DNA of 64,000 bases, from positions 18,712 through 82,711 of IMG/VR virus record IMGVR_UViG_3300035661_000037. One strand, given 5' to 3'. The notes under the pieces were generated by a model. The model had not been told where the DNA came from. It ran no database searches and saw nothing but the letters and a program-made list of their open reading frames with translations. The position numbers and the translations under genes are program-made. The DNA comes from a virus. Positions 18,048 to 63,332 of this stretch are shown here, one piece after another. Position 1 is the first letter of the stretch, and each line of letters begins with the position of its first letter.

Positions 18048-18121
18048 GACTTGTTAGCACAAGGGTAGTGCGGCGGCGTTCAAAGTCGTTTATCGCAGTT
18101 CGATTCTGTGGCTCGTCTCCA
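18048..18121 (+). tRNA. Probable tRNA with anticodon UCA (reads UGA)
   Basis: Cloverleaf read by hand. D-stem GCAC/GTGC with loop AAGGGTA. Anticodon stem GCGGC/GTCGT (two G.U pairs) with loop GTTCAAA, anticodon TCA at 18080-18082, and A36-A37-A38 as expected for a U-starting codon. Four-nt variable loop, T-stem CGCAG/CTGTG with canonical loop TTCGATT, and encoded CCA. The acceptor stem (GACTTGT with GCTCGTC) has two mismatches at pairs 4 and 5, and the discriminator base is T. UCA would decode the opal stop. The amino acid identity is not clear. Confidence 0.55.
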
Positions 18122-18156: not shown

Positions 18157-18375
18157 CTATTTACTCAAGCAAGCCCTGCGACACTCACGGTACTGCCCAC
18201 CAAGTTCCTGAACCTTCAAGATATGCCCGCCGAATGTAGCATCGGTTAGCGGAGTAGGTTCAGGGCAAGAAACAGTAGACAACGACTTATCAACACAGTC
18301 GAGCTGAGTAGGGGATTTTAGGAACCACCCCCCGCCAAAGCCCAATGCCAATGATAATAACAATATTATTTCCAT
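18157..18375 (-). CDS. Spanin-related small membrane protein
   Basis: Last gene of the lysis block (72 aa). It has an N-terminal hydrophobic segment (residues about 2-20) and a periplasmic tail with several Cys, ending QYRECRRACLSK. The YREC element also occurs in the upstream spanin-like gene and is typical of Rz-like proteins, where the Cys cross-links. No lipobox is present near the N-terminus, so it is not a standard o-spanin. The start overlaps the previous gene by 10 nt. It could be a second i-spanin-type subunit or an accessory. Confidence 0.55.
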   Translation of the reverse strand: MEIILLLSLALGFGGGWFLKSPTQLDCVDKSLSTVSCPEPTPLTDATFGGHILKVQELGGQYRECRRACLSK

Positions 18376-18668
18376 GCTGCCCCCATTATAGCTTTATTGG
18401 TCAAGTCCATCATCGTAGTATCGGCAGCACATTCACGATATTGTACTTCTGTATTAATTTTCTCAAGAGTTTTATTATATATCGTCTTGTTCTCAACTTT
18501 TATCTTAGCTATCTCAGTTGCCGCCGAAGCCGCTGCAACGTCTCGAACACGCTCTAGTTTTAGGTCTACACTGTCTTCGTAAAGTCCTCTTGTGTACCAT
18601 CCAGAGGCTACTAGAAGGAGTATCAAAGCTAACCCTAGCACATATTTTATTTGCTCGGTCACGATCAA
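18366..18668 (-). CDS. Rz-like inner-membrane spanin
   Basis: 100 residues: a short cytoplasmic start, one TM helix at about residues 9-25 (YVLGLALILLLVASG), then a long charged helical region with Ala-rich heptads and a QYRECA motif near residue 77. This is the i-spanin plan: an inner-membrane anchor with a periplasmic coiled coil that fuses inner and outer membranes at lysis. It overlaps the upstream membrane gene by 4 nt and the downstream gene by 10 nt. Presence of a spanin points to a Gram-negative host. Confidence 0.7.
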   Translation of the reverse strand: MIVTEQIKYVLGLALILLLVASGWYTRGLYEDSVDLKLERVRDVAAASAATEIAKIKVENKTIYNKTLEKINTEVQYRECAADTTMMDLTNKAIMGAAWK

Positions 18669-19009
18669 CCTTTTGGATTATTGCCTTCAGAATCGAAAGC
18701 ATAGCCGACAGCTATAAACATACCCGCCATTAGTAGAGCTTCTATATTTATAGAGTTGCTATTAGCAAATTGTTGCCACAATACTTGAGGATTTACCCAA
18801 TCACCAATACCGGCCTGACATGTCAGAAGTGTTGAGCCGAATATACCGAATAATTTAGCACCCTGCTTCTTTTTATCACCGAATACAAGATATGTAAAGA
18901 ATGAAACCCCAGTGCGCTTTGAGCTTCTTAAATTAAACCAGTGGCGTAGTACGCCAATGTACTGTAGAGCTAGAACAATCAGAAACGATACTATACTTAT
19001 GTCTTTCAT
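18665..19009 (-). CDS. Putative holin
   Basis: 114 residues from the ATG at 19009, which overlaps the DUF5675 stop (ATGA); a longer frame to 19033 exists. Hydrophobic stretches are visible at about residues 5-22 (SIVSFLIVLALQYIGVL), 50-65 (LFGIFGSTLLTCQAG) and 85-103 (ALLMAGMFIAVGYAF), so 2-3 TM segments, with basic residues between. Location between the candidate endolysin and the spanin genes is the classical holin position. The assignment is from topology and context. Confidence 0.6.
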   Translation of the reverse strand: MKDISIVSFLIVLALQYIGVLRHWFNLRSSKRTGVSFFTYLVFGDKKKQGAKLFGIFGSTLLTCQAGIGDWVNPQVLWQQFANSNSINIEALLMAGMFIAVGYAFDSEGNNPKG

Positions 19010-19452
19010 TTTGGCAAACCTTCCACAGTCCAATAAATATGCTCACCACGACTAGCAGCTTGCTCCATTTTCTCATAGAGCGCATCCCGTGCAGTACGAC
19101 TTCCTGACACCTCGCCATGAGTTTCGTCTCGTTCTTTGCCTGTTATAAGGCAGCCTTCTGTATCGTGGGAAGTATTCCCTGGATGAATCCGAATACCAGC
19201 ATACCCCGCAACATTAGTAACCTCCCACATCAACTGAGACCACCTACCACTCCAAGTTTTCTTGACTTCATAAGTACCTACAGGGATTGCAGTCTCATTC
19301 TTAACCTTCCACTGAGCAACGGGGGTACCTGTAATTTCCCTGACCGTATCTTCAAGAATATATGGGCAGCCTTTAAACCACACATCATCTATAAATAGTT
19401 TACTTAGTGTGAAGTCTTGTCCAAAGTTATAGCGGGTTTGAGTAATTTTCAT
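19006..19452 (-). CDS. DUF5675 protein, candidate endolysin
   Basis: 148 residues from the Met at 19452, which begins the domain (MKITQTRYNFG). Family features: an N-terminal FTLSKLFIDD strand, YILEDTVREI, AIPVGTYEV and a conserved IRIHPGN...DTEGCLITG block near residue 95-112. The His followed some residues later by a Gly-Cys resembles the catalytic arrangement of YkuD-type L,D-transpeptidases, so a Cys-dependent peptidoglycan enzyme is possible, but that is inference. It heads the lysis block, with holin-like and spanin genes next to it and no other endolysin visible in the window. Confidence 0.72.
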   Translation of the reverse strand: MKITQTRYNFGQDFTLSKLFIDDVWFKGCPYILEDTVREITGTPVAQWKVKNETAIPVGTYEVKKTWSGRWSQLMWEVTNVAGYAGIRIHPGNTSHDTEGCLITGKERDETHGEVSGSRTARDALYEKMEQAASRGEHIYWTVEGLPK

Positions 19453-19555
19453 TTTTTTTGTCACAATGTGATTTATCGAAAGGGGTGAGTCAATTTTTGC
19501 GGAACTACTGTGAAAACCAGTGGATCCATACTTATGTCTGAAATTATTATATTTG

Positions 19556-20050
19556 TTACCATACCACAGCTTGAACCGCTGCCGCTGTTGTAGCTTCATT
19601 TATGGTAGTCACCAGATCAAGCAACTTCGCGGATAAGGATTGATAAGTAGTTGCACCATCAACTAAAACCTGCTTGATTTGCGCTGCTGTGTGTAGGGGT
19701 CTGCTCCAAACTCCGGCAGTATCTTTAGCCCAGAACTTAACAGGAAGTCCTGAAGCAACCGCACCAATTAAATTAGTTTGGTCGTTGTGTTTGCTTGGAT
19801 AAGTGTAACCTGCACCAAGGGCGATTGATGTAAAACCTGAGAGAATTTCAGCCCCACACGCGGCTGTCAAGATTGCTATCTGTGTAGCTTTGATATCATC
19901 CAGTGTTGGAACGTCAACGGGTATTGGTATGTAGCCGTCTGATAGCAAAGTAAGGTATTCTCGGTAATCACTATTCGCTGGGTCAGTTGGAATGCTTGCG
20001 TTATCTGATAGACGGGTGATTGTTGTTGAGTTTTGGTTTAGCTTGTACAT
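19556..20050 (-). CDS. DUF4376 tail-fibre-associated protein
   Basis: 164 residues. The C-terminal half shows the DUF4376 pattern: an Ala-rich helix (ATQIAILTAACGAEILSG), FTSIALG, YPSKHNDQTNL, then a helix after WSRPLHTAAQIKQVL. The N-terminal part resembles the start of phage tail fibre assembly proteins (DNASIPTDPANSDYREYL). Such proteins follow tail fibre genes and often act as assembly factors or short fibre components. It is 9 nt downstream of the fibre gene at 20060. About 100 nt to the next gene hold no supported ORF. Confidence 0.75.
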   Translation of the reverse strand: MYKLNQNSTTITRLSDNASIPTDPANSDYREYLTLLSDGYIPIPVDVPTLDDIKATQIAILTAACGAEILSGFTSIALGAGYTYPSKHNDQTNLIGAVASGLPVKFWAKDTAGVWSRPLHTAAQIKQVLVDGATTYQSLSAKLLDLVTTINEATTAAAVQAVVW

Positions 20051-57890: not shown

Positions 57891-58922
57891 CTAATGTCCT
57901 GCCCATACGTCCCCCCAAGTACCTGTCAACGCACCTTTAGCGTAATCAGTAACTCTATTCTCGAAGAAGTTCCCATGAATAGGGGCATTAATCATCTCAT
58001 CAATCCAAGGCAGCGTATTTTTCTTTTGCTTGAATATACCTTTGAGACCTAGCTGGATCAACCTGCGATCTGCGATATACCTTATATACTTTTTCAAATC
58101 TAGTTTATCAAGCCCCTCAAACTCACATTGGCCAAAGCACAAGTCAATGAACGCATCTTCTAGTTCGACCATCTTCTCAGCCGTAGCATAAATCTGCTGT
58201 TTTAACTCATCGTTCCAAACTTTTCGGTTTTCTTCTACCAATGTTCTGAACAGTTTGACCATCCCTTCAACGTGCATAGACTCATCGAGAATCGACCATG
58301 TTATTATCTGCCCCATACCTTGCATCTTACCGTGGCGGGGGAAGTTCAGCAGCATAGCAAAACTTGAGAACAGTTGCAATCCTTCAGTAAACGCGGAAAT
58401 TGCGGCAATCTGTTGCAATACGTTTTTATCTGACAGGTTCTTAAACTGTTCAAAGTAGTCGTGTTTGTCTGACATCTCTTTATATTTTAGAAACTCGTCG
58501 TAGATTGTTTCTGGCATACCTAATGTTTCAATAAGATGCGAATACGCAACCACATGAACCGACTCCCTAGCTGCAAATGACAGCAGCATCATCCTAACTT
58601 CCGGCTGTGGGAAATACGGTAGGTAGTTTTTAACATACCCCTCGGATACGTCAATATCCCCTTGAGTAAAAAATCTGAAAATATTGGTCAGAAAATCTTT
58701 CTCATTTACTGATAGTTTATGCTTCCAATCTTTTGTGTCTTCATGTAACGGGACTTCTTTGGGTAGCCAGTGCGCCGACTCGTGCTGCTCCCATAAATCG
58801 AATGCCCAAGGGTAGTTGAATGGTTTATACGACTTTCGCTCATCAGTTAGTTTCAAGTTTAGTTCTCTCTTTAAGTTGTTTAGATACTTTTGGAAGTGGC
58901 ATCCACAGTAAGCAGTCTTCAT
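57891..58922 (-). CDS. nrdB: Ribonucleotide reductase beta subunit (class I)
   Basis: Radical-generating small subunit of aerobic RNR. Metal ligand motifs: WEQHESAHW near residues 44-52, RESVHVVAYSHL near 118, TEGLQLFSSF near 175, and DESMHVEGM near 212. The first in-frame ATG is at 58922, but it overlaps the DUF551-like gene by 80 nt; a TTG at 58856 gives a more typical KLTDERKSYKPFNYPW start (321 aa), so that may be the true start. Works with nrdA to make dNTPs for phage replication. Confidence 0.9.
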   Translation of the reverse strand: MKTAYCGCHFQKYLNNLKRELNLKLTDERKSYKPFNYPWAFDLWEQHESAHWLPKEVPLHEDTKDWKHKLSVNEKDFLTNIFRFFTQGDIDVSEGYVKNYLPYFPQPEVRMMLLSFAARESVHVVAYSHLIETLGMPETIYDEFLKYKEMSDKHDYFEQFKNLSDKNVLQQIAAISAFTEGLQLFSSFAMLLNFPRHGKMQGMGQIITWSILDESMHVEGMVKLFRTLVEENRKVWNDELKQQIYATAEKMVELEDAFIDLCFGQCEFEGLDKLDLKKYIRYIADRRLIQLGLKGIFKQKKNTLPWIDEMINAPIHGNFFENRVTDYAKGALTGTWGDVWAGH

Positions 58923-59046
58923 CGCGCCAATGACCTATGTGCGCGATACCTGATTTAAGGTATATAAGTATCTTAACATTGGTTGGCGGCTTACTATCTT
59001 TTGGGTGCTGCCACATACTAGCTACCACAGGCAATGCACTCTTCAT
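58843..59046 (-). CDS. DUF551-like protein nested between nrdA and nrdB
   Basis: 67 residues. The pattern KPPTNVKILIYLKSG...HIGHWRDEDCLLWMPLPK matches the second half of DUF551 and ends with the typical W(M/A)PLP. It overlaps the end of nrdA by 29 nt and the 5' end of the longest nrdB frame. A second DUF551 protein occurs at 9271. Function of DUF551 is unknown; its place in the nucleotide operon might hint at a link. Confidence 0.65.
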   Translation of the reverse strand: MKSALPVVASMWQHPKDSKPPTNVKILIYLKSGIAHIGHWRDEDCLLWMPLPKVSKQLKERTKLETN

Positions 59047-60775
59047 CTAGCTTAACCCTCTCAACTTTTTGACTAATCTTGTCACCCTTTTTTATCTTAT
59101 CACTACGGCAGTAATACAAAGATTTTAATCCTTTCTTCCAAGCACTGAAGTGTGCTTTATGAAGTTCAGCAATACTTGTATTAGGCATGAAAAACAGGTT
59201 TACTGACTGCCCCTGATCTATCAACTGCGCCCTAGCAGCGGCCATCTCAATAATATACGCCTGGTCTATCTCCATCGCTGTCTTGAATACGTCTTTCTCC
59301 CAATCACTTAAACACGTTAGCGATTGCGCAGAGCCGTTGTCAGTCGTTATAGTCGCCCAAGCCGTGGCATACTCCTCATCAGATAACTTAGATTTTAGTA
59401 GCTTATCAAGGTGCTTATTTTTCTGAAAATAGCTCCCACTAAGTGTATCTTGCCTATAACCATTGGCCCGATACGGCTCTATAGAAGGCGATGTGTTGCC
59501 CATTATAATACTACTCGAAGCGGTTGGCGCCACAGCCATAGTATGTGAAAATCTATGTCCATATCCAACAGCATCGGGCGCTTCTCCTCGTTCTTCCGCA
59601 AGTGCTTTACTAGCTTGTTTTAGCTTATCGTTAATTAGTTTAAAGCTATTAAGATTAATTCCAAATGCCATCGGTGACTCAAATGGGATACCTTTAGATT
59701 GTAGATAACTATGGAATCCAAGAACACCTACTCCAATACTGCGTTCGTGTTTCGCCGAATTTACTGCCTTCCATAGCGGTTCACCTGCGTCCTCACAGAA
59801 AACGTCCAACACATTATCCAGCATCTCGGCCACATCTTTAATAAACTGAGAATCATCTTTCCAAGCATCATAGTAGTCCATATTCAGACTAGACAAGCAA
59901 CATACCGCTGTCCTAGTAGAACTTACTGGTAGCTCGATCTCAGCACATAGATTAGAGTTTTTAATCTTCAACCCTTTATCTTTCAGCCATACCGGCAACG
60001 CAGCATTAGCGGTATCAATGAAATGCAAATATGGCTCCCCTGTCTGCATTCTTGTCTCAAGAATCATCTGCCATAGGTATTTCGCAGATACAGTATTCAC
60101 AACAACACTTGAGGCGGGGTCATGCAGAGACCAAGAGTCGTCAAAATCTGGGTCGCGCATACAGTTTTCAATTATCTTCATAAAATCATCTGTAATATTG
60201 ATACCGTGATGAAGATTTGTACACCTTACATTCTGATCCCCAGTAGGTTTACGCATCTCAATAAACTGTAGGATATCTGGGTGGTTGATGTCTAGGTAAG
60301 ATGCGTAGGATCCCCTCCTTGTTGTGCCTTGCTTGTAGGCCAAACAATGAAAGTCATATACCTTCAGATGGGGCATTACACCAACCGACTTATCATCAGA
60401 TGATCTAATACCTACGTAAGTCCCTACCCCACCACCCGTTACAGACAGCCACGCTGTTTCAGACATCGTGTTAATAAGCCCTTCGGTCGTATCTTCCATA
60501 GAGTTAAGGAAGCAACTGATAGGTAACCCCTTCTTACTACGCCCATAAGAAAGTATCGGCGTAGAATAAGATAGCCAATGGCTACTTGAATAATCATAAA
60601 GCCGTTGGGCATGGTCTTGGTCAGACGCAAATTTAGAACTCACGAATGCATACCGTTCTTGCGGAGATACTTCACTAGGAAGCATATAAGACTCTTTTAG
60701 GCGTTTTAGACCTAGCTCGTCGAACAAGGCATCTCTTGACACATCTATTTTTATATCGTACTTCACTGGTATCAC
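59018..60775 (-). CDS. nrdA: Ribonucleotide reductase alpha subunit (class I)
   Basis: 585 residues, without an N-terminal ATP-cone. Catalytic core features: LPISCFLNSM near residue 85 (first redox Cys), VTGGGVGTYVG near 105, NSNLCAEIELP near 275 (active-site Cys) and TRTAVCCLSSLN near 290. Also seen is VNLFFMPNTSI near 520, and the C-terminal CIACGS pair, which passes electrons to the active site. Short compared with host NrdA, typical for phage enzymes. Makes dNTPs with nrdB. It sits 46 nt downstream of thyX. Confidence 0.92.
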   Translation of the reverse strand: MIPVKYDIKIDVSRDALFDELGLKRLKESYMLPSEVSPQERYAFVSSKFASDQDHAQRLYDYSSSHWLSYSTPILSYGRSKKGLPISCFLNSMEDTTEGLINTMSETAWLSVTGGGVGTYVGIRSSDDKSVGVMPHLKVYDFHCLAYKQGTTRRGSYASYLDINHPDILQFIEMRKPTGDQNVRCTNLHHGINITDDFMKIIENCMRDPDFDDSWSLHDPASSVVVNTVSAKYLWQMILETRMQTGEPYLHFIDTANAALPVWLKDKGLKIKNSNLCAEIELPVSSTRTAVCCLSSLNMDYYDAWKDDSQFIKDVAEMLDNVLDVFCEDAGEPLWKAVNSAKHERSIGVGVLGFHSYLQSKGIPFESPMAFGINLNSFKLINDKLKQASKALAEERGEAPDAVGYGHRFSHTMAVAPTASSSIIMGNTSPSIEPYRANGYRQDTLSGSYFQKNKHLDKLLKSKLSDEEYATAWATITTDNGSAQSLTCLSDWEKDVFKTAMEIDQAYIIEMAAARAQLIDQGQSVNLFFMPNTSIAELHKAHFSAWKKGLKSLYYCRSDKIKKGDKISQKVERVKLDEECIACGS

Positions 60776-60821: not shown

Positions 60822-61628
60822 CTACATCTCTTCAAGATATTTACGATACTGTTTCCAGCCTCGGAAGTTTGCGTAGAACTTGTCGTCTATTCTCGACTGA
60901 GCTTGGTGCTCAACAGGCGACATATGCGCGGGCTTAGACAGTACTAATTTATCATGTAGTTCAATGTCTTTATAAGGTGTTGGCGATGACTGGTCATGGT
61001 TCAAATAACTTACACGGGCACAACGAGCTGCTGAGAATTTTAAGCAGTCTTTTACAGAATACTCGACAATTTCTGACGTGCTGACGTAGGGTATGTGCCA
61101 CTCCCCCTCCGCGAGTTGTGTTGGGGTGCTTGCATCATGTGCGGCTCGCATTACTTTCGCCAATACTTGAATCTCTGGTTGCGCGTCAGGATGGTCGCGG
61201 AGTTCGTAGAAGTTATCCCACTCGGTGGACGTTACTACCACGTGCATCCACTGGAACGGCTCCAAAATTCTGTTGACAATCTGCTTATGACAGTTCTCCT
61301 TGACCATGTTCTGTGCTGTAGCTGATGCTAACTGTGCTGCGGTTCTCCAATAGTGCTGAGAATATTCTAGGCTGGTACCAGACAGTTCCTCACGCGCCTG
61401 CATCCCTGCTTGGTTCTTGCCCCAGTGTACTGGCGTGGCAGGATCAGTTAGAACTTGCTCAATCATCTTTGCTACAGGGATTGCGCGGGAAGATGCTGCA
61501 TTTCTCGAAAACACCCTGTGCGTCATAACTTCGCTATGGATGAACCTATGGTACTTTAACTGCATCGTAGTGATGCGTACTCCGTTAGTATTTACGCTGT
61601 CTAAGATAATTTTGGCTTCGATTGTCAT
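60822..61628 (-). CDS. thyX: FAD-dependent thymidylate synthase
   Basis: 268 residues. The ThyX signature RHRxxSxNxxSxR is seen as THRVFSRNAASSR near residues 36-48. Other family pieces are a long helical region and LKFSAARCARVSYL near 200. Converts dUMP to dTMP using folate and FAD, independent of host ThyA. The ATG overlaps the HExxH gene stop (ATGA). A weak -10 (TATAAT) lies near the downstream nrdA gene. The first signature Arg is Thr here. Confidence 0.85.
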   Translation of the reverse strand: MTIEAKIILDSVNTNGVRITTMQLKYHRFIHSEVMTHRVFSRNAASSRAIPVAKMIEQVLTDPATPVHWGKNQAGMQAREELSGTSLEYSQHYWRTAAQLASATAQNMVKENCHKQIVNRILEPFQWMHVVVTSTEWDNFYELRDHPDAQPEIQVLAKVMRAAHDASTPTQLAEGEWHIPYVSTSEIVEYSVKDCLKFSAARCARVSYLNHDQSSPTPYKDIELHDKLVLSKPAHMSPVEHQAQSRIDDKFYANFRGWKQYRKYLEEM

Positions 61629-62044
61629 GCTTTATCCTTTATCGTTTCTTGAGGCGTTATTATACCAGACTTATTCTTCTTAGGTAGTGCAAAAACTTTC
61701 TCGGTTACTTTAGCATACAAGAACTCGATCAAATATGCCAGCGTTTCGACCTTGTCATCCGTCGGGTTGATACTCGCACGTTTTAGGATGAACACGGAAG
61801 TGTGTACTACCTCATGTAGAATAGTTGACGAATTGTTGTCAAATACGCCTAAAAGGTACACAACTTCTTCGTTACTGTGTACTTCTTCACAAGCTAGTCC
61901 AGCAGCGTCCTCGGTATTTTCAGGGTAATCTTCGCCGTGTATGTGCTTGTAAGTCCTCTCAAAGGTCTTTCGATCTCTGCATATGTATAGAACGCCCCCA
62001 AATAGTGGTATCGGTATCTTTGATACTGTACGAGGCAGTGTCAT
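61625..62044 (-). CDS. HExxH zinc-peptidase-like protein
   Basis: 139 residues. A clear HEVVH motif (ILHEVVHTS, near residue 77) with a downstream Glu (VETLAYLIEF, near 99) fits the gluzincin type of zinc site. The rest is a small alpha/beta protein with LFGGVLYICRDRKTFERTY. It lacks a signal peptide and is embedded in the nucleotide metabolism operon by 4-nt overlaps. It could be a protease or a de-metallated relative. No family name is certain. Confidence 0.65.
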   Translation of the reverse strand: MTLPRTVSKIPIPLFGGVLYICRDRKTFERTYKHIHGEDYPENTEDAAGLACEEVHSNEEVVYLLGVFDNNSSTILHEVVHTSVFILKRASINPTDDKVETLAYLIEFLYAKVTEKVFALPKKNKSGIITPQETIKDKA

Positions 62045-62424
62045 TTAACAATTACATTGACACAAGCAGCTGTGCCAGATATCGGCGGCGTTGCAGCGCT
62101 TATCTTACGCTCGTAGCGATCAGTACAATGTGGTGTACCACAGGTCTTTACATCTGTAGGTATCCATACAAGATTACTAACTGCGTCGCATCCTCCGCAA
62201 GCTAGTGGGATGACATGGTTTATCTGCCAGCCTTCGCAGTTGCCAGAACTCTGCGTAGTCGCTGGGCATGGGTGTATCCGCTTAAATGCTGTTAAAACAT
62301 CAGATCGTCTAGTGATTACACCTGAACTATCTCGTAATGGTGCCCCACAGTAACGTGTTTCCAAGAGTGCTTGATCGGCGTAGGCGGGGATGCTTAGAGT
62401 AAGTAGCAGTATAAATTTAAACAT
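62041..62424 (-). CDS. Secreted HNH-type endonuclease
   Basis: 127 residues. The N-terminus is a signal peptide (MFKFILLLTLSIPAYA, then D), followed by a Cys-rich domain with the HNH core WQINHVIPLACGGCDAVSNLVWIP near residues 66-90. Several Cys pairs are consistent with a periplasmic or secreted nuclease. Phages carry such exported HNH proteins rarely; the export suggests a role outside the cytoplasm, for example degrading foreign DNA or affecting superinfection. The start overlaps the preceding stop. Confidence 0.75.
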   Translation of the reverse strand: MFKFILLLTLSIPAYADQALLETRYCGAPLRDSSGVITRRSDVLTAFKRIHPCPATTQSSGNCEGWQINHVIPLACGGCDAVSNLVWIPTDVKTCGTPHCTDRYERKISAATPPISGTAACVNVIVK

Positions 62425-62581
62425 TGGTAGTCTCCTGTTTAGTATTGTAATCTAACATATGCAGCATATTATCATAGGTGATGGCTACTTCTAACTGGTT
62501 ATAGTAAGCACACATTAACCCCCAAGCGTTGCAGGTAGTCATGAGTACTTGGTGTAGTTTTAGGTGATTACTGTCACTCAT
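62417..62581 (-). CDS. Small hypothetical protein (54 aa)
   Basis: The ATG at 62581 lies by the stop of the previous small gene, and its stop runs 8 nt into the HNH gene. The product is acidic and helical (HLKLHQVLMTTCNAWGLMC), with several Met and Cys residues. No motif recognised. Overlaps on both sides make it a likely operon member despite its size. Confidence 0.55.
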   Translation of the reverse strand: MSDSNHLKLHQVLMTTCNAWGLMCAYYNQLEVAITYDNMLHMLDYNTKQETTNV

Positions 62582-62732
62582 GGAAGTCGCGGGTATCTAC
62601 ATAAAACATTATAGCTGTTGCCCATGCTATCGCTTCCCAGTATCGCTCGGTGTATACAGCATATACAGCGCTACCTACCAGACTTACGATGACTATGGCT
62701 TTGTAATACTTATTATGCTGTACGTTATTCAT
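62574..62732 (-). CDS. Small membrane protein (52 aa)
   Basis: A 52-residue frame with GGAG before the ATG and overlaps with both neighbours. It has two hydrophobic stretches, residues about 10-26 (KAIVIVSLVGSAVYAVY) and 31-43, so probably a short membrane hairpin or one TM helix and one amphipathic helix. Function unknown. Confidence 0.55.
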   Translation of the reverse strand: MNNVQHNKYYKAIVIVSLVGSAVYAVYTERYWEAIAWATAIMFYVDTRDFHE

Positions 62733-62970
62733 CTTTATTCTCCACGATTAGTATAGCAGCTTTTACACCGCCTTGGAACAGCGCTTGACGTGTTTCGGGT
62801 GACAGCCACAACATAAACTGAGGCATCAGGTCTTCGTGGATCTCGGTGAAGCTGTTGCGACCTACGCCACCTGATCGCATCTTGGATGAGTCTAGGCGCT
62901 TGTTATCCTTAAAATGACCTGCCTGCTTCTTATACTTCTTGCAGATTTTTGTTATATTTATATAGTTCAT
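62725..62970 (-). CDS. KilA-N-like small DNA-binding protein, paralog 2
   Basis: 81 residues, start NYINITKICKKYKKQAGHFKDN, a short form of the KilA-N DNA-binding domain, followed by IHEDLMPQFMLWLSPETRQAL. It is clearly related to the gene at 63015 (shared ICK and HFKDN and LWLS elements). GAGG precedes the ATG, and the promoter is at 62997-63025. Probably an early regulator or a DNA-binding host takeover protein. Confidence 0.65.
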   Translation of the reverse strand: MNYINITKICKKYKKQAGHFKDNKRLDSSKMRSGGVGRNSFTEIHEDLMPQFMLWLSPETRQALFQGGVKAAILIVENKDE

Positions 62971-62996: not shown

Positions 62997-63025
62997 ATTA
63001 TCGCTTAATTAAGGTTATTTGTCAA
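62997..63025 (-). promoter_or_regulatory. sigma70-like promoter for KilA-N paralog 2
   Basis: TTGACA (63025-63020), 17-bp spacer, GATAAT (63002-62997). Overlaps the end of the upstream paralog. Confidence 0.72.
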
Positions 63026-63278
63026 CTGGTTTCTTATATGTTTTAGCAAATGCTAGGGTGGCTTCGATTCCTTGGGTGGCTAACATGATTCGTAACTTTG
63101 GTTCAGTGAACGACAGCCATTGTAAGAAGTCTATAAGCAGGTCTTCAGAGATCTCAGTATGTATCTTCTTACCGTTTTTAACTATCTTAAACCCTGACTT
63201 GTCCGCATAGTTATCTTTGAAGTGTGCTGGGAGTTTTCCAAATCTCTTGCATATTTCTGTTATGTTTGTTGGGTTCAT
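63015..63278 (-). CDS. KilA-N-like small DNA-binding protein, paralog 1
   Basis: 87 residues, NPTNITEICKRFGKLPAHFKDN at the front and EISEDLLIDFLQWLS in the middle, the compact KilA-N form of phage regulators. GAGG precedes the ATG, with the promoter at 63304-63332. Two tandem paralogs, each with its own promoter, suggest a duplication with separated regulation. Function unknown beyond likely DNA binding. Confidence 0.65.
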   Translation of the reverse strand: MNPTNITEICKRFGKLPAHFKDNYADKSGFKIVKNGKKIHTEISEDLLIDFLQWLSFTEPKLRIMLATQGIEATLAFAKTYKKPVDK

Positions 63279-63303: not shown

Positions 63304-63332
63304 ATTATATATCTGTTTATGGATAGTGTCAA
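63304..63332 (-). promoter_or_regulatory. Near-consensus sigma70 promoter
   Basis: TTGACA (63332-63327), 17-bp spacer, TATAAT (63309-63304). Consensus at both boxes; the best match in the window on the - strand. Drives the KilA-N-like genes. Confidence 0.85.

What the first reader, a model, noticed from the sequence alone, without database searches (positions are those of the whole stretch)
62041..62424. Exported HNH endonuclease in the nucleotide operon
A signal peptide is followed by an HNH domain with multiple Cys. Phage HNH nucleases are normally cytoplasmic homing enzymes. Export would place it in the periplasm, where it could cut incoming DNA of competing phages or serve nucleotide scavenging next to nrdA, nrdB and thyX.
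Basis: partly seen in the sequence, partly recalled or inferred. Interest (0 to 1): 0.55.

Follow-up and report, generated by a model that had tools for sequence, protein, structure and literature searches.

The report
Phage-encoded exported HNH nuclease
This phage carries a small DNA-cutting-type enzyme that looks built to work outside the cell's interior, and its relatives in other phages often sit beside the genes that burst the host, which suggests a job on DNA outside the cytoplasm rather than gene homing.

Summary
ORF 62041-62424(-), 127 aa, has a Sec-type signal peptide by motif (MFKFILLLTLSIPAYA|D), a diverged HNH nuclease domain and 8 Cys, and lies in an overlapping operon above thyX, nrdA and nrdB. 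SignalP could not be run. Family evidence supports export: in 104 representatives (window included) the Cys number of the mature part is even in 98, against 52.0 +/- 5.0 on permuting columns, and Cys pairs come and go together, as disulfides would. Signal-peptide-like N-termini occur in 53 of 71 viral relatives against 195 of 1659 neighbouring genes. The protein falls in a mainly viral clade (47 of 51 rows). Of 50 kin records, 30 hold a searched lysis gene, and the nuclease lies within 2 kb of it in 20 (5.3 +/- 2.0 expected). None of 69 thyX loci of other viral contigs holds it, so the nucleotide setting looks particular to this genome. Best reading: an exported DNase, gated by disulfides, acting on DNA outside the cytoplasm, often at lysis. 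Superinfection exclusion remains open; scavenging and homing are weakly supported. Exported prophage DNases are known in Gram-positives: a new variant of a known kind.

The parts
62041..62424 (-). Exported HNH nuclease gene, 127 aa; TGA stop inside the ATGA overlap with the next gene
62377..62424 (-). Predicted Sec signal peptide, residues 1-16 (MFKFILLLTLSIPAYA), AxA motif before D17
   Evidence: sequence; heuristic, control; SignalP not run; the exact site is my reading
62044..62376 (-). Predicted mature protein, residues 17-127, 8 Cys (26, 53, 63, 76, 79, 95, 100, 121)
   Evidence: even Cys number and covarying pairs in relatives
62107..62229 (-). HNH core, residues 66-106: N69-H70, D80, N84, W87, D102, E105; strand-strand-helix in the model
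62432..62436 (-). Shine-Dalgarno-like AGGAG, 7 nt before the ATG
63304..63332 (-). Sigma-70-type promoter-like site, TTGACA-17-TATAAT (12 of 12), upstream of the gene row
   Evidence: 12/12: mean 0.025 per 64 kb in 40 first-order Markov sequences
62997..63025 (-). Second sigma-70-type promoter-like site, TTGACA-17-GATAAT (11 of 12), in front of the KilA-N gene
62725..62970 (-). KilA-N domain protein, 81 aa, first gene after the second promoter-like site
   Evidence: 25.0 bits, cut-off 23.8
62574..62732 (-). 52 aa ORF, overlaps its neighbours by 8 nt
62417..62581 (-). 54 aa ORF, overlaps the nuclease gene by 8 nt
61625..62044 (-). 139 aa protein (phrog_1365, E 3.6e-19; HEVVH motif by eye), 4-nt overlap with the nuclease gene
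60822..61628 (-). thyX
   Evidence: PF02511, E 1.3e-8
59018..60775 (-). nrdA
   Evidence: PF02867, E 5.7e-107
57891..58922 (-). nrdB
   Evidence: PF00268, E 4.4e-76

Best explanation
The gene encodes a small HNH-type nuclease made as a Sec precursor. Signal peptidase cuts after A16 and up to four disulfides form outside the inner membrane. If folding depends on these disulfides, the enzyme stays inactive in the reducing cytoplasm, where the phage's own unpackaged DNA lies, and becomes active in the periplasm or after release. It then cuts DNA outside the cytoplasm, most likely host DNA spilled at lysis, which frees progeny from a viscous mesh while virion DNA is shielded by capsids. The same pool could also cut incoming DNA of other phages. 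In this phage the gene is cargo in a gene row behind strong host-type promoter-like sites, not part of nucleotide metabolism. Shown here: the gene, the family, the signal-peptide enrichment, the covarying Cys, the mainly viral clade and its lysis-gene linkage. Inferred: cleavage, disulfide gating, DNase activity and target. My odds: exported 0.85; active nuclease 0.75; role at lysis or on released DNA 0.4; superinfection exclusion 0.25.
For: Signal-peptide-like N-termini in 53 of 71 viral and 57 of 81 genome-contig relatives against 195 of 1659 neighbour genes. Even Cys number in 98 of 104 representatives (51 of 52 viral rows with the window, 47 of 52 genome rows) against a permutation mean of 52.0, sd 5.0, highest 68 in 5000 permutations. 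Cys pairs 95/100 (phi 0.97), 53/63 (0.89), 26/79 (0.77). HNH family and fold. Clade of 51 rows, support 100/99, 47 viral with the window and 4 rows from three bacterial contigs. Lysis linkage: 20 of 30 records within 2 kb, null 5.3 +/- 2.0, none of 20,000 random placements as many; 11 of 19 clusters at 80% identity have a near member, rough binomial P 1e-4. By eye, the nuclease lies between an endolysin-like and spanin-like genes in L012 and beside a lysozyme in L023 (the lysozyme is a Pfam hit), and beside amidase-like genes in the bacterial contigs L089 and L090.
Against: In this window the gene is not in a lysis cassette: the lysis-like genes that I see by eye lie about 42 kb away (18157-19599, not searched). 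The nearest tree row, L010, sits among genes that look like replication genes by eye. The window protein departs from the viral consensus at 5 of 38 conserved positions, among them N69 (D in 61 of 68 other viral rows), V86 (Q in 64) and T101 (K in 60); 18 of 68 viral rows depart at 5 or more, so this is not extreme, but activity is not certain. 18 of 71 viral relatives fail the signal-peptide rule with the chosen start; 10 of 71 fail a laxer rule that has no control. 20 of the 50 records showed none of the six searched lysis families, L012 among them. Only 18 of 27 records remain near if three matches below Pfam cut-offs are dropped. In genome-contig rows the 26/79 pair does not hold (both 3, one alone 10, none 39), and C76 has no single clear partner. 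One viral row has an odd Cys number, by my reading L010. No biochemical data.
Confidence: 0.45

Rival explanations
1. Superinfection exclusion: the periplasmic nuclease cuts DNA of competing phages as it crosses the envelope.
For: Export evidence. In this window the gene follows two near-perfect host-type promoter-like sites, so it may be made before lysis.
Against: Kin are linked to lysis genes. Sites of 11/12 also occur on the structural-gene strand here (31319, 51516, 56038), so timing is not settled. No PADLOC match for the window protein and 1 of 65 for the family at E<=0.001.
Confidence: 0.25
2. Nucleotide scavenging: it degrades external or host DNA to feed nrdA, nrdB and thyX.
For: Overlapping gene row with thyX, then nrdA and nrdB.
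Against: 0 of 69 thyX loci from other viral contigs hold a family member in the flanks searched. An exported endonuclease alone gives oligonucleotides, which need further enzymes and uptake (general knowledge).
Confidence: 0.07
3. Free-standing homing endonuclease beside nrd genes, with a chance hydrophobic N-terminus.
For: HNH domain; homing genes often sit beside nrd and thymidylate synthase genes in phages and are sporadic (general knowledge), so absence from other thyX loci does not exclude it.
Against: Family-wide signal-peptide-like N-termini and even Cys numbers; kin are linked to lysis genes; about 110 aa leaves little room for a separate DNA-recognition domain.
Confidence: 0.05
4. Packaging-associated HNH like HK97 gp74, next to terminase.
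For: Among neighbours within three genes, several terminase large-subunit families are matched by 2 of 95 downstream proteins each, and phrog_15 by 1 of 102 upstream proteins (only the first 25 families are shown).
Against: Packaging is cytoplasmic (general knowledge) and this family looks built for export; lysis linkage is commoner.
Confidence: 0.03
5. Ordinary secreted bacterial HNH nuclease picked up as cargo, now decayed or without benefit to the phage.
For: A branch on bacterial contigs with signal-peptide-like N-termini exists. The window copy has changes at conserved sites.
Against: It keeps H70, D80, N84, W87, D102, E105 and 8 Cys in an intact frame. Its clade is mainly viral.
Confidence: 0.15

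Closest known systems
Prophage-encoded secreted DNases of streptococci (Spd1, Sda1)
   Same: Phage-borne, exported nucleases; [quoted passage not shown]
   Different: Gram-positive hosts; Spd1 28 kDa; no sequence comparison made, none fetched
HNH proteins on bacterial contigs (genome branch, 47 of 51 rows on that side of the tree)
   Same: Same domain, many signal-peptide-like N-termini, shared Cys pair 53/63
   Different: Mostly GG-A-D rather than GG-C-D, and mostly without Cys pairs 26/79 and 95/100; other side of the tree, at a weakly supported root
HK97 gp74-type packaging HNH
   Same: HNH domain, phage gene
   Different: Needed for cos cleavage (PMC8928760, passages), a cytoplasmic step (general knowledge); export features not described there
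HNH domains of Cas8-HNH (type I-F HNH) and McrA
   Same: Best fold matches: 8ydb_J Foldseek E 0.033; 9siu_A Z 5.5, rmsd 7.8 over 80; 8w1p_G Z 5.4, rmsd 3.7 over 72; 6ghc_A Z 4.2, rmsd 3.9 over 68
   Different: Domains of larger proteins or machines; weak similarity

Membership tests
HNH / beta-beta-alpha-metal nucleases | HNH profile match | tested here: met
   35 of 65 members hit PF01844 and 40-48 of 65 hit each of four PHROG HNH or endonuclease VII families at E<=0.1; the window protein alone is below Pfam cut-offs
HNH / beta-beta-alpha-metal nucleases | Strand-strand-helix fold with conserved His and Asn | tested here: met
   Model pLDDT 90.3 with E65-69, E84-88, H100-107 in numbering without Met1; H70 in 144 of 144 and N84 in 143 of 144 rows
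HNH / beta-beta-alpha-metal nucleases | Metal-dependent DNA cleavage | not testable with these tools
   needs an assay
Sec-exported proteins | Signal peptide with AxA site | tested here: met
   heuristic only; family enrichment
Sec-exported proteins | Cleavage and extracytoplasmic location | not testable with these tools
   Cys covariation is indirect support
Phage lysis-cassette genes | Position beside endolysin or holin | tested here: inconclusive
   within 2 kb in 20 of the 30 kin records that hold a searched lysis gene; not so in this window as far as seen by eye
Free-standing homing endonucleases | Recurrence beside one target gene | tested here: inconclusive
   0 of 69 thyX loci hold it, but such genes are sporadic; nrd loci were not searched on their own
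Known anti-phage defence nucleases | PADLOC model match | tested here: not met
   0 matches for the window protein; 1 of 65 members at E<=0.001

The most novel reading that the evidence does not exclude
A distinct phage clade of exported, disulfide-gated HNH nucleases is a further component of Gram-negative phage lysis: a 'lysis DNase' kept off during replication by the reducing cytoplasm and released with the endolysin and spanins to clear host DNA, or to cut the DNA of competitors. This phage has moved it to a gene row with host-type promoters for earlier use.
Probability: 0.3. Interest if true: 0.75.

Novelty: new variant of a known kind. Interest (0 to 1): 0.5.

Why it matters
Gram-negative phage lysis is described with holins, endolysins and spanins (general knowledge). 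A recurrent exported nuclease in the same cassettes would add a step aimed at DNA and a simple way to protect the phage's own genome: activation by disulfides outside the cytoplasm. It is directly testable with one small protein. The family is nearly unseen in the phage records searched: three members used as tblastn queries at E<=1e-5 each hit the same 1 of 50,697 records, over 43-45% of the query, which may be why it has gone unnoticed.

Tried and rejected
Pfam, PHROG, NCBIfam and PDB sequence searches with the window protein alone gave only weak HNH matches. Phage and plasmid records gave 1 of 50,697 and 2 of 72,556 matches. A conserved partner or immunity gene was sought by clustering up to five neighbours on each side: the largest cluster spans 6 loci, and none of the nine window neighbours tested had a homologue among them. 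Opal recoding was considered because of a UCA tRNA, but TGA ends 12 of 33 checked ORFs, with read-through of 2-30 codons in 11; the nuclease ORF would run 48 codons on, over the overlapping next gene. A host could not be fixed; in the 15 rows listed of 1373 records the portal protein is nearest to Xp15 and Dinoroseobacter phages (32-35% identity). Literature: seven searches (one search found no paper) and passages of PMC8951688, PMC3765740, PMC8928760, PMC9294136, PMC10367356, PMC3629212 and PMC11437467 showed no description of an exported HNH in Gram-negative lysis cassettes; PMC10367356 tells of signal-peptide genes of unknown function in Porphyromonas phages. Only listings and passages were seen, no whole paper.

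Limits of the counts: 9 of 152 distinct relatives were dropped from the Cys alignment because my motif anchor did not match. Searches kept 80 of 123 and 80 of 88 loci. The lysis-gene set counts 3 matches below Pfam cut-offs (L027, L061, L065), two of them among the 20 near cases. The 50 records were chosen among those of about 13.5 kb or more; shorter ones, near copies, and L045, L046, L050, L070, L084, L085 and L087 were left out. Random placement ignores gene density and relatedness; the cluster count allows for the latter only roughly. The 69 thyX loci include near copies and some flanks are cut by contig ends. The laxer signal-peptide count has anchor errors and no control; an earlier any-start count gave 50 of 71 and 64 of 81, also with anchor errors. 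My structure input lacked Met1, so its numbering is one lower than in this report.

Full report
Observation. The ORF 62041-62424 (-) is real, 127 aa, with an AGGAG ribosome-binding site 7 nt before the ATG and overlaps of 8 and 4 nt with its neighbours. The window is bases 18712-82711 of an 82,711-base virus record. The product has a Sec-type N-terminus and 8 Cys in the predicted mature part.

Is it HNH? Alone it hits Pfam HNH_5 and HNH only weakly. Its family does so clearly: of 65 aligned members, 35 hit Pfam HNH and 48, 46, 42 and 40 hit phrog_6050, phrog_1035, phrog_333 and phrog_7785 at E<=0.1. AlphaFold2 with 65 sequences gives pLDDT 90.3, pTM 0.77 and a strand-strand-helix core. The best solved matches are HNH domains of Cas8-HNH and McrA, at modest scores; the best viral model is A0A6J5R773, an HNHc protein, E 7.1e-6. 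The window copy keeps H70, D80, N84, W87, D102 and E105 and has N69, V86 and T101 where most viral rows have D, Q and K; 18 of 68 other viral rows depart from consensus as much or more.

Family. One protein query found 6 viral loci; a profile found 123 viral loci (80 kept) and 88 genome-contig loci (80 kept). After removing repeats there are 71 viral and 81 genome-contig ORFs besides the window's. A tree of 104 representatives puts the window protein in a clade of 51 rows, support 100/99: 47 viral rows, the window among them, and 4 rows from three bacterial contigs; nearest rows by path are L010 and L009. The tree rests on 88 columns and the bootstrap had not settled.

Export. With starts chosen by ribosome-binding site and codon, 53 of 71 viral and 57 of 81 genome-contig ORFs pass a signal-peptide rule; 195 of 1659 neighbour genes do, 112 of 1016 among those of at most 170 aa. 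Stronger is the Cys pattern: in the part after the signal the number of Cys is even in 98 of 104 representatives, while independent permutation of columns within the viral and the genome set gives 52.0, sd 5.0, highest 68 in 5000. Pairs 95/100, 53/63 and 26/79 are mostly kept or lost together (phi 0.97, 0.89, 0.77); the 26/79 pair holds in viral rows (41 both, 2 single, 9 none) but not in genome rows (3 both, 10 single, 39 none). Disulfides form in the periplasm and not, as a rule, in the cytoplasm (general knowledge), so this is evidence for export that does not use the N-terminus. Paired metal-binding Cys could give evenness too, but pairs that are lost independently fit disulfides better than four-Cys zinc sites (inference).

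Context in kin. Five cell-wall hydrolase families and one holin family of Pfam were sought in 50 kin records. Thirty records hold at least one; in 20 the nuclease lies within 2 kb, in 22 within 3 kb, all 22 on the same strand; random placement gives 5.3, sd 2.0, within 2 kb. Counting clusters at 80% identity, 11 of 19 have a near member and 9 have only near members, rough P 1e-4 for the 11. Three matches are below Pfam cut-offs, two of them near; without them it is 18 of 27. In the bacterial contigs L089 and L090 the gene follows an amidase-like gene (by eye).

Context here. In this window the gene is the fourth of a row that begins with a KilA-N gene, behind a 12/12 and an 11/12 sigma-70-type site, with no terminator-like site reported on that strand between them and the gene; phrog_1365, thyX, nrdA and nrdB follow. 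None of 69 thyX loci of other viral contigs, the nearest at 70% identity, holds a family member in the flanks searched. So the nucleotide genes say little about its role.

Mechanism. I favour an exported nuclease that becomes active only where disulfides form, which spares the phage's replicating DNA and turns it on DNA outside the cytoplasm, at lysis above all. Superinfection exclusion is the main rival and could use the same protein; the host-type promoter-like sites in this phage leave it open. Scavenging, homing and packaging are weaker. Cleavage, gating, activity and target are all inferred.

Known or new. Exported prophage DNases are known in streptococci (PMC9294136, passages), so the principle is not new. 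An HNH clade of this kind tied to lysis genes, in phages whose hosts appear to be Gram-negative (the bacterial rows of the clade are Nitrosomonas and Rubrivivax contigs), was not found in the seven paper searches listed. Verdict: a new variant of a known kind, interest 0.5.

Noticed in passing
18048-18121 (+): A 74-base tRNA with a UCA anticodon, called tRNA-SeC by ARAGORN, perhaps an opal suppressor; TGA is nevertheless a common stop here (12 of 33 ORFs checked).
   Followed up: partly
63304-63332 and 62997-63025 (-); nine more sites in the window: Eleven sigma-70-like sites of 11/12 or better against a mean of 1.65 in Markov sequences; the only 12/12 site lies in front of this gene row. The phage may rely on host-type promoters.
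   Followed up: partly
61625-62044 (-): phrog_1365 protein of unknown function with an HEVVH motif and a weak Peptidase_Mx1 match; may be a small metallopeptidase, coupled by 4-nt overlaps to the nuclease and thyX genes.
   Followed up: no
62725-62970 and 63015-63278 (-): Two neighbouring small proteins that resemble each other, one with a KilA-N match: perhaps a tandem duplicate, each with its own strong promoter-like site.
   Followed up: no
L090:644-976 and L090:3185-3541; L057:4902-5294 (+) and a second ORF (-): One Nitrosomonas MAG contig and one viral contig each hold two different family members.
   Followed up: no
L010:4986-5402: The nearest kin protein has LLAC-S near its N-terminus, which looks like a lipoprotein signal by eye; it may be membrane-anchored.
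   Followed up: no
L168:7147-7851: In the closest thyX relative, an ORF that looks like a GIY-YIG homing endonuclease (by eye) follows a long nrdA-like ORF.
   Followed up: no
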